56,743 nt of DNA from a virus: positions 1 through 56,743 of IMG/VR virus record IMGVR_UViG_3300024267_000006; one strand, 5' to 3'. The notes beneath the pieces were generated by a model, which had not been told where the DNA came from, did no database searches, and saw nothing but the letters and a program-made list of their open reading frames with translations. Below, one piece after another: positions 38,448-38,917 of the stretch. Every line of letters starts with the position of its first letter. Within the stretch, counting starts at the first letter, position 1. A program made the position numbers and the translations under genes.

Positions 38448-38917
38448 TACCAAGGAAACGTTCTTTAAAATATTGGAAGGCACATTAGATATTGATCATT
38501 GATAATGTGAGTGTATTGCCGAAAAAATCCTGACGGAAAGAGGGATTAAGGCACACTAGACATCGGACAAGTTCCGGCTTAGTTGCAAAAGTGCGTAACT
38601 AAGACTCGACAGAGTAGAAGGTGGTAGATCGGGAAAGATATCTAAACTAATCTTTCTAAGAGCATTGCAAGTACCCGAGAGGAAGCCTTGCCTAAGTGAC
38701 TGAACATCCTGTCTTATTAGGGGATAAAGTACAATCAAAGCCGTTGTGGCACTACAACGAGATTTAACCATCTTGAGTAGAACTTGAAATAATAGTAAAG
38801 TTGATTGGTATGCAGTAATCAACACAATAAGTCGATCTTCTAAGGCTAGTATACCTTAGTACACGATCCTTCCTTTTTTTATTAAAAGAGTAGATTTAAT
38901 TGTCTACTCTTTTTTTT
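38448..38917 (+). ncRNA. Large structured RNA of unknown family
   Basis: About 450 nt with no plausible gene. Many perfect helices: CACATTA/TAATGTG (38481, 38503), AATCC/GGATT inside TGCC..GGCA (38517-38553), CTTAGTT/AACTAAG (38578, 38597), GAAAGAT/ATCTTTC (38633, 38650), CGTTGT/ACAACG (38742, 38754), GTTGATT/AATCAAC (38800, 38817), CTAAGG/CCTTAG (38840, 38854). It ends in a strong terminator and is followed by tRNA-Ala. Layout resembles the large ornate phage RNAs (GOLLD, ROOL), which also sit by tRNAs, but I cannot match it to either. Confidence 0.7.
38884..38917 (+). terminator. Rho-independent terminator of the large RNA
   Basis: AAAAGAGTAGA (38884-38894) pairs with TCTACTCTTTT (38903-38913), followed by further T's. 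Confidence 0.85.

What the first reader, a model, noticed from the sequence alone, without database searches (positions are those of the whole stretch)
38448..38917. Large ornate non-coding RNA next to tRNA-Ala
A 450-nt gene-free stretch with at least seven perfect 6-7-bp helices, nested arrangement, its own promoter-like box and a strong terminator. Length, structure density and position by a tRNA recall GOLLD and ROOL, RNAs of large phages, but I can see no sequence match; it may be a new class.
Basis: partly seen in the sequence, partly recalled or inferred. Interest (0 to 1): 0.75.

Follow-up and report, generated by a model that had tools for sequence, protein, structure and literature searches.

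The report
Double manA RNA in Bacteroidota phages
This stretch of a virus that probably infects marine Bacteroidota encodes a roughly 420-base folded RNA built from two nested copies of a known but unexplained RNA motif (manA), and its setting as a gene of its own among transfer RNA genes suggests that the motif is a free-standing RNA and not a gene switch.

Summary
In detail: 38460-38883 is a conserved, non-coding, highly structured RNA. I found seven further full-length sequences in relatives (69-92% identical to the window). On the eight, 115 pairs in 22 helices are 96.7% paired and 49 pairs show changes on both sides (23.5 in shuffles). It is not an unknown class: Rfam's manA RNA matches its 3' half below threshold (32.7 bits, cut-off 55.2), and does so in six sequences. 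The 5' half is a second manA unit with its own P1, P2, core and three-hairpin P4; the other copy sits inside its P5 helix. The RNA begins with a boxA like that after tRNA-Ala(UGC) in Bacteroidota rRNA spacers. Two relatives have a Bacteroidota-type promoter just before boxA; one RNA lies exactly between two tRNA genes. manA was filed as cis-regulatory and riboswitch-like; these contexts argue for a free-standing trans-acting RNA. The partner is unknown. Verdict: a new, enlarged variant of manA that makes an orphan motif testable.

The parts
38243..38419 (+). Hc1, histone H1-like protein gene; the RNA follows it, here and in five relatives
   Evidence: Pfam PF07432 E 6e-21; neighbours
38433..38453 (+). 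small hairpin just upstream of boxA (TTGGTA/TACCAA; GGTTA/TAACC in L251 and L252)
   Evidence: weak on its own (z -1.3)
38460..38475 (+). boxA-like element GTTCTTTAAAATATTG, start of the conserved RNA
   Evidence: present in all eight RNAs; matches the Bacteroidota rRNA spacer element
38475..38480 (+). closing helix P0, 5' strand, pairs with 38868-38873
   Evidence: 3 of 6 pairs with double changes
38481..38625 (+). outer manA unit (copy 1): P1 38481-38509, P2 5' strand 38511-38515, core and P3 38517-38553, P4 38554-38623 with three hairpins
38626..38838 (+). P5 helix (38626-38631 with 38833-38838) that encloses copy 2
   Evidence: 4 of 6 pairs with double changes
38660..38817 (+). inner manA unit (copy 2): P1' with GNRA loop 38667-38691, core 38697-38730, P4' 38732-38807 with three hairpins
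   Evidence: Rfam manA 32.7 bits at 38676-38864
38840..38864 (+). P6 hairpin (38840-38859) and P2 3' strand (38860-38864) of the outer unit
   Evidence: P6: 5 of 6 pairs with double changes
38868..38883 (+). P0 3' strand and U-rich 3' end of the conserved RNA
   Evidence: alignment A4
38884..38917 (+). terminator-like hairpin with U-run, specific to the window
   Evidence: 12-bp stem, z -4.7
38918..38992 (+). tRNA-Ala(UGC)
   Evidence: ARAGORN; upstream of the RNA in L250

Best explanation
Shown: 38460-38883 encodes a conserved structured RNA of about 420 nt made of two manA-type units; the inner one sits in the P5 helix of the outer one, and a covarying stem closes the whole. Inferred: it works as a free-standing trans-acting RNA made during infection. 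Host RNA polymerase starts at a Bacteroidota-type promoter (L393, L394) or reads through from the Hc1 gene or a tRNA. NusB/S10 bind boxA, so that Rho does not stop this long untranslated RNA and its folding is assisted, as in rRNA operons. Its ends are set by a terminator, a hairpin or tRNA processing. The two conserved cores (UGACYGAAYAAUCC...GGGGAUAAGGUAC) then offer a bivalent binding surface to an unknown partner, most plausibly a part of the host's translation or RNA machinery, given the repeated association with tRNA and tmRNA genes. It is not a leader that switches a downstream gene.
For: Fold. manA ancestry: Rfam manA matches in six sequences at 27-33 bits; model R1, built without these RNAs, hits both cores in L393-L396, including L394 copy 1, which no pattern had selected; copy 1 and copy 2 align with each other in L394 at 43 against a shuffle maximum of 27; models of each copy return manA sites. 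Stand-alone gene: TTTG...TATATTTG directly before boxA in L393 and L394, terminator in the window, exact placement between tRNA-Ala and tRNA-Gly in L250. boxA. manA in general is near tRNA or tmRNA genes on the same strand in 22 of 145 loci, 7.1 expected, and its downstream genes differ between cyanophages.
Against: No transcript or partner was observed. Copy 1 in the window alone is too diverged to be seen by plain alignment; the claim rests on relatives. Rfam's curated score is not reached. The loci behind models R1-R3 tests were gathered with a core pattern, so those tests are partly circular. Most manA loci (123 of 145) are not beside a tRNA, and many cyanophage copies do stand before a gene on the same strand.
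Confidence: 0.62

Rival explanations
1. Cis-regulatory manA element: a riboswitch-like leader that senses a metabolite and controls the gene downstream, as proposed for manA in 2010.
For: Rfam files manA as Cis-reg; Weinberg et al. found manA in potential 5' UTRs; several cyanophage copies precede a same-strand gene.
Against: In the window a terminator and a tRNA follow; in L250 a tRNA follows directly; in L393 and L394 the next gene has its own promoter-like sequence; in S-SSM7 a tRNA and in P-TIM68 an opposite-strand gene follows; downstream genes are unrelated.
Confidence: 0.1
2. A GOLLD/ROOL-like RNA that assembles into a homo-oligomeric cage or particle.
For: Large, ornate, near tRNA islands, as for GOLLD and ROOL (PMC12286853); self-complementary UGAUCA loop in copy 1, UGGCCA in L394.
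Against: No GOLLD or ROOL match; shorter; the same UGAUC loop occurs in about a tenth of single manA P1 hairpins while most carry GACG, which cannot pair with itself.
Confidence: 0.15
3. A 3'-UTR element of the Hc1 mRNA that stabilises or regulates that message.
For: In six of eight sequences the RNA follows an Hc1 gene.
Against: In L393 and L394 there is no Hc1 gene before it and a promoter-like sequence stands directly before boxA; in L250 a tRNA gene separates the two.
Confidence: 0.06
4. A decoy: the RNA's boxA titrates NusB/S10 from host rRNA transcription, and the rest is a stabiliser.
For: boxA copies the host spacer element; PMC4807359 recounts that strongly transcribed NutL RNA titrates Nus factors and lowers rRNA expression.
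Against: A decoy would not need 400 nt of conserved fold; no such boxA is evident before the cyanophage manA RNAs.
Confidence: 0.05

Closest known systems
manA RNA (Rfam RF01745; Weinberg et al. 2010, PMC2864571)
   Same: Order P1, P2, core UGACUGAAYAAUCC/GGRUAARGU, P4 with three hairpins, P6, P2 partner; T4-like phages, marine; frequent tRNA neighbours
   Different: About 420 nt instead of about 190; two units, one nested in P5 of the other; closing stem P0 and boxA added; below Rfam's cut-off; Bacteroidota-type setting instead of cyanophage
GOLLD and ROOL RNAs (PMC12286853)
   Same: Large ornate phage RNAs near tRNA genes, function unknown
   Different: No sequence or model match; smaller; oligomer not shown
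Bacteroidota rRNA operon spacer, tRNA-Ala(UGC) to boxA to 23S
   Same: GTTCTTT..ATATTG 3' of tRNA-Ala(UGC), as in L250
   Different: Followed by the phage RNA, not by 23S rRNA
T4 stable RNAs rnaC and rnaD (species 1 and 2)
   Same: Stable non-tRNA RNAs in the tRNA cluster of a T4-type phage
   Different: No match of model R1 to that region

Membership tests
manA RNA (RF01745) | Curated Rfam score of 55.2 bits | tested here: not met
   32.7 bits in the window, 27-29 in relatives
manA RNA (RF01745) | Significant similarity over the full model | tested here: met
   Positions 1-192 matched, E 1.2e-6 for 681 bases against 4227 families; repeated in five relatives
manA RNA (RF01745) | Helix order P1, P2, core, P4 with three hairpins, P6, P2 partner, with covariation | tested here: met
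   Outer unit. Inner unit lacks its own P6, and its P2' (GCAU/AUGC) never varies
manA RNA (RF01745) | Cis-regulatory position in a 5' UTR | tested here: not met
   Terminator then tRNA (window), tRNA (L250), separate promoter-like sequence for the next gene (L393, L394)
GOLLD / ROOL | Match to the Rfam models | tested here: not met
   None at E up to 10
GOLLD / ROOL | RNA-only oligomer | not testable with these tools
   Needs native gels or cryo-EM
boxA antitermination leader | Sequence like the host rRNA boxA at the 5' end | tested here: met
   One or two mismatches to GTTCTTTGACATATTG in six of eight RNAs; 41 of 121 genome sites of that 16-mer lie 3' of tRNA-Ala(UGC)
boxA antitermination leader | Binding of NusB/S10 and antitermination | not testable with these tools
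   Needs biochemistry or a reporter assay

The most novel reading that the evidence does not exclude
manA is not a riboswitch candidate but a widespread phage trans-acting RNA made from tRNA islands; in Bacteroidota phages it has doubled into a bivalent unit with an rRNA-like leader (boxA, tRNA-flanked) that acts on host ribosomes or ribosome biogenesis.
Probability: 0.25. Interest if true: 0.88.

Novelty: new variant of a known kind. Interest (0 to 1): 0.7.

Why it matters
manA has stood since 2010 as an orphan, presumed cis-regulatory motif. Finding it as a free-standing, doubled, tRNA-flanked RNA gene with an rRNA-style boxA moves the question from which metabolite it senses to what this phage RNA binds. 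Eight sequences with strong covariation, approximate ends, and culturable cyanophages that carry the single-unit form make that testable.

Tried and rejected
Sigma-70-like promoter in the window: not above shuffles. Minimum-energy hairpin GUUGAUU/AAUCAAC: not kept in L250 or L251/L252; P4' covaries instead. My first P2 for copy 2 in the window (CUAAG/CUUAG): broken in L250; CUUAG belongs to P6. T4 rnaC/rnaD as relatives: no model match. Synteny through the methyltransferase at 39132: no relatives; the Fpg gene worked, but the RNA is not beside it in relatives. Hits L003, L004, L005, L007, L008 and L397-L400 were judged chance matches. L041-type tRNA-flanked core: its larger fold is not significant alone (z -1.2). 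The RNA in bacterial chromosomes: 0 of 395 Bacteroidota genomes, a sample without a positive control. BLASTN of non-cyanophage manA clades against isolate phages: no match. Plain sequence repeat between the two halves: clear in L394 and L395, 1 of 500 shuffles as good in L393, absent in the window.

Full report
What is there. The stretch between the Hc1 gene (38243-38419) and tRNA-Ala (38918-38992) has no plus-strand gene and folds much better than shuffles (z -3.8). At Rfam's curated thresholds only tRNAs are found. With E-values allowed up to 10, one non-tRNA family stands out: manA RNA, full-length model, 38676-38864, 32.7 bits, E 1.2e-6 against 4227 families. GOLLD and ROOL are not in that list.

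Finding relatives. A pattern from the predicted core, scanned over 2.9 million viral contigs, gave two real relatives among seven rows. L009 passes Rfam's manA cut-off (62.8 bits) and lies directly after a permuted tmRNA gene. L006 lies between two tRNA-Met genes in a 33-tRNA array. Wider patterns gave over 100 manA loci. The window's Fpg gene led to a set of related marine phages, and a search of their whole records found the complete RNA at 92% and 87%. Further patterns gave L250, L251, L252, L393, L394, L395 and L396.

The fold is real. On the eight full-length sequences (the window is 69-92% identical to the others) RNAalifold gives 115 pairs, 49 of them with changes on both sides that keep the pair. 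In the formal count 96.7% of cells pair (shuffles 88.6 +/- 0.5), 49 pairs have double changes (23.5 +/- 3.0), and the covariation score is 0.374 (0.200 +/- 0.010); sliding the partners leaves 3-6 such pairs. For example, P6 is CUAAGG/CCUUAG in the window and CUAGAG/CUCUAG in L250. The eight sequences are related, so counts of cells are not counts of independent events.

It is two manA units, one inside the other. A model of manA built without these RNAs (R1, 25 diverse sequences, with P2, P3, P5 and P6 covarying) hits copy 2 in the window at 18.9 bits and hits two cores in each of L393, L394, L395 and L396 (the copy 1 hits in L395 and L396 are weak, about 9-10 bits). L394 copy 1 had not been selected by any pattern. 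In L394 the two halves align at 43 against a shuffle maximum of 27. The covarying helices fall into manA order. Outer unit: P1 with a UGAUCA loop, P2 5' strand, core and P3, P4 with three hairpins, P5, P6, P2 3' strand. Inner unit: P1', core', P4' with three hairpins, lying inside P5. A model of copy 1 alone (R3) has manA cores or copy 2 as 17 of its 19 non-self hits over 452 kb; a model of copy 2 (R2) has manA sites as its 11 best hits outside the family. Because those loci were gathered with a core pattern, these two tests show consistency more than independent proof; the Rfam hits are independent of it.

Transcription and ends. All eight RNAs start with GTTCTTT followed by a conserved A-rich stretch. 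The related 16-mer GTTCTTTGACATATTG, which I recalled as a Bacteroidota rRNA boxA, was tested on genomes: most hits are Bacteroidota, and 41 of 121 sites lie 3' of tRNA-Ala(UGC), twelve of these before a recognisable 23S start. L250 repeats that arrangement: tRNA-Ala(UGC), ten bases, boxA, RNA, then tRNA-Gly with no spacer. In E. coli, boxA is bound by NusB/NusE and can prevent Rho termination or aid rRNA maturation (PMC4807359). In L393 and L394 a TTTG-N20-TATATTTG sequence, which I know as the Bacteroidota promoter type, ends five bases before boxA. In the other six the RNA follows an Hc1 gene. The closing stem P0 covaries and is mostly followed by U-rich sequence.

What manA is. Weinberg et al. 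described manA as a riboswitch-like, cis-regulatory candidate of marine phages (PMC2864571); Rfam corrected its structure in release 14.3 (PMC7779021). The contexts seen here do not fit a leader well: 22 of 145 loci are within 200 nt of a same-strand tRNA or tmRNA against 7.1 expected, often abutting. In isolate cyanophages manA follows gp23, regA, pstS, ferredoxin and other genes, stands before tRNA-Gly in S-SSM7, and in P-TIM68 the next gene is on the other strand. I therefore read manA as a free-standing RNA, and the window RNA as its doubled form. This step is inference; a leader role in some cyanophages is not excluded.

Mechanism and limits. Most likely the RNA is made by host polymerase under boxA antitermination, matures at a terminator or at tRNA ends, and offers two copies of a conserved core to an unknown partner, plausibly of the translation or RNA machinery. 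A self-complementary UGAUCA loop (UGGCCA in L394) could let it dimerise, but about a tenth of 95 distinct manA P1 hairpins carry the same loop while most carry GACG, so recognition by a partner is at least as likely. No expression data were available. The host phylum is inferred from boxA and promoter type; the phage is a T4-type myovirus (clamp loader, tail sheath, terminase, sigma factor). Absence of the RNA from many related contigs may partly reflect fragments.

Noticed in passing
L009 1748-2240; L051, L090, L110: manA RNA lies directly beside tmRNA-type sequence: after a permuted tmRNA gene in L009, and before what looks like permuted-tmRNA sequence in L051, L090 and L110 (seen by eye only).
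   Followed up: partly
L041 2808-3274 (minus strand), L054, L071, L151: A manA-like core at the start of a 470-nt gap between tRNA-Gly and tRNA-Met genes, perhaps another enlarged manA form; folding alone not significant (z -1.2).
   Followed up: partly
Viral contigs manA loci, P1 hairpin: P1 loops fall into few types: GACG (64 of 95), UGAUC/CUGAUCA (about 10), GAGC and a few others; they may be alternative docking loops.
   Followed up: partly
window 23430-23506 (+): A tenth tRNA-like match (Rfam 31.3 bits) that ARAGORN does not call; possibly a decayed tRNA.
   Followed up: no
window 37805-37972: A PspC-domain protein (PF04024, E 5e-14), a bacterial envelope-stress domain, in the phage genome.
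   Followed up: no
window 21859-22464: A phage RNA polymerase sigma factor (phrog_1740, E 1.5e-18), in line with T4-like late transcription.
   Followed up: no
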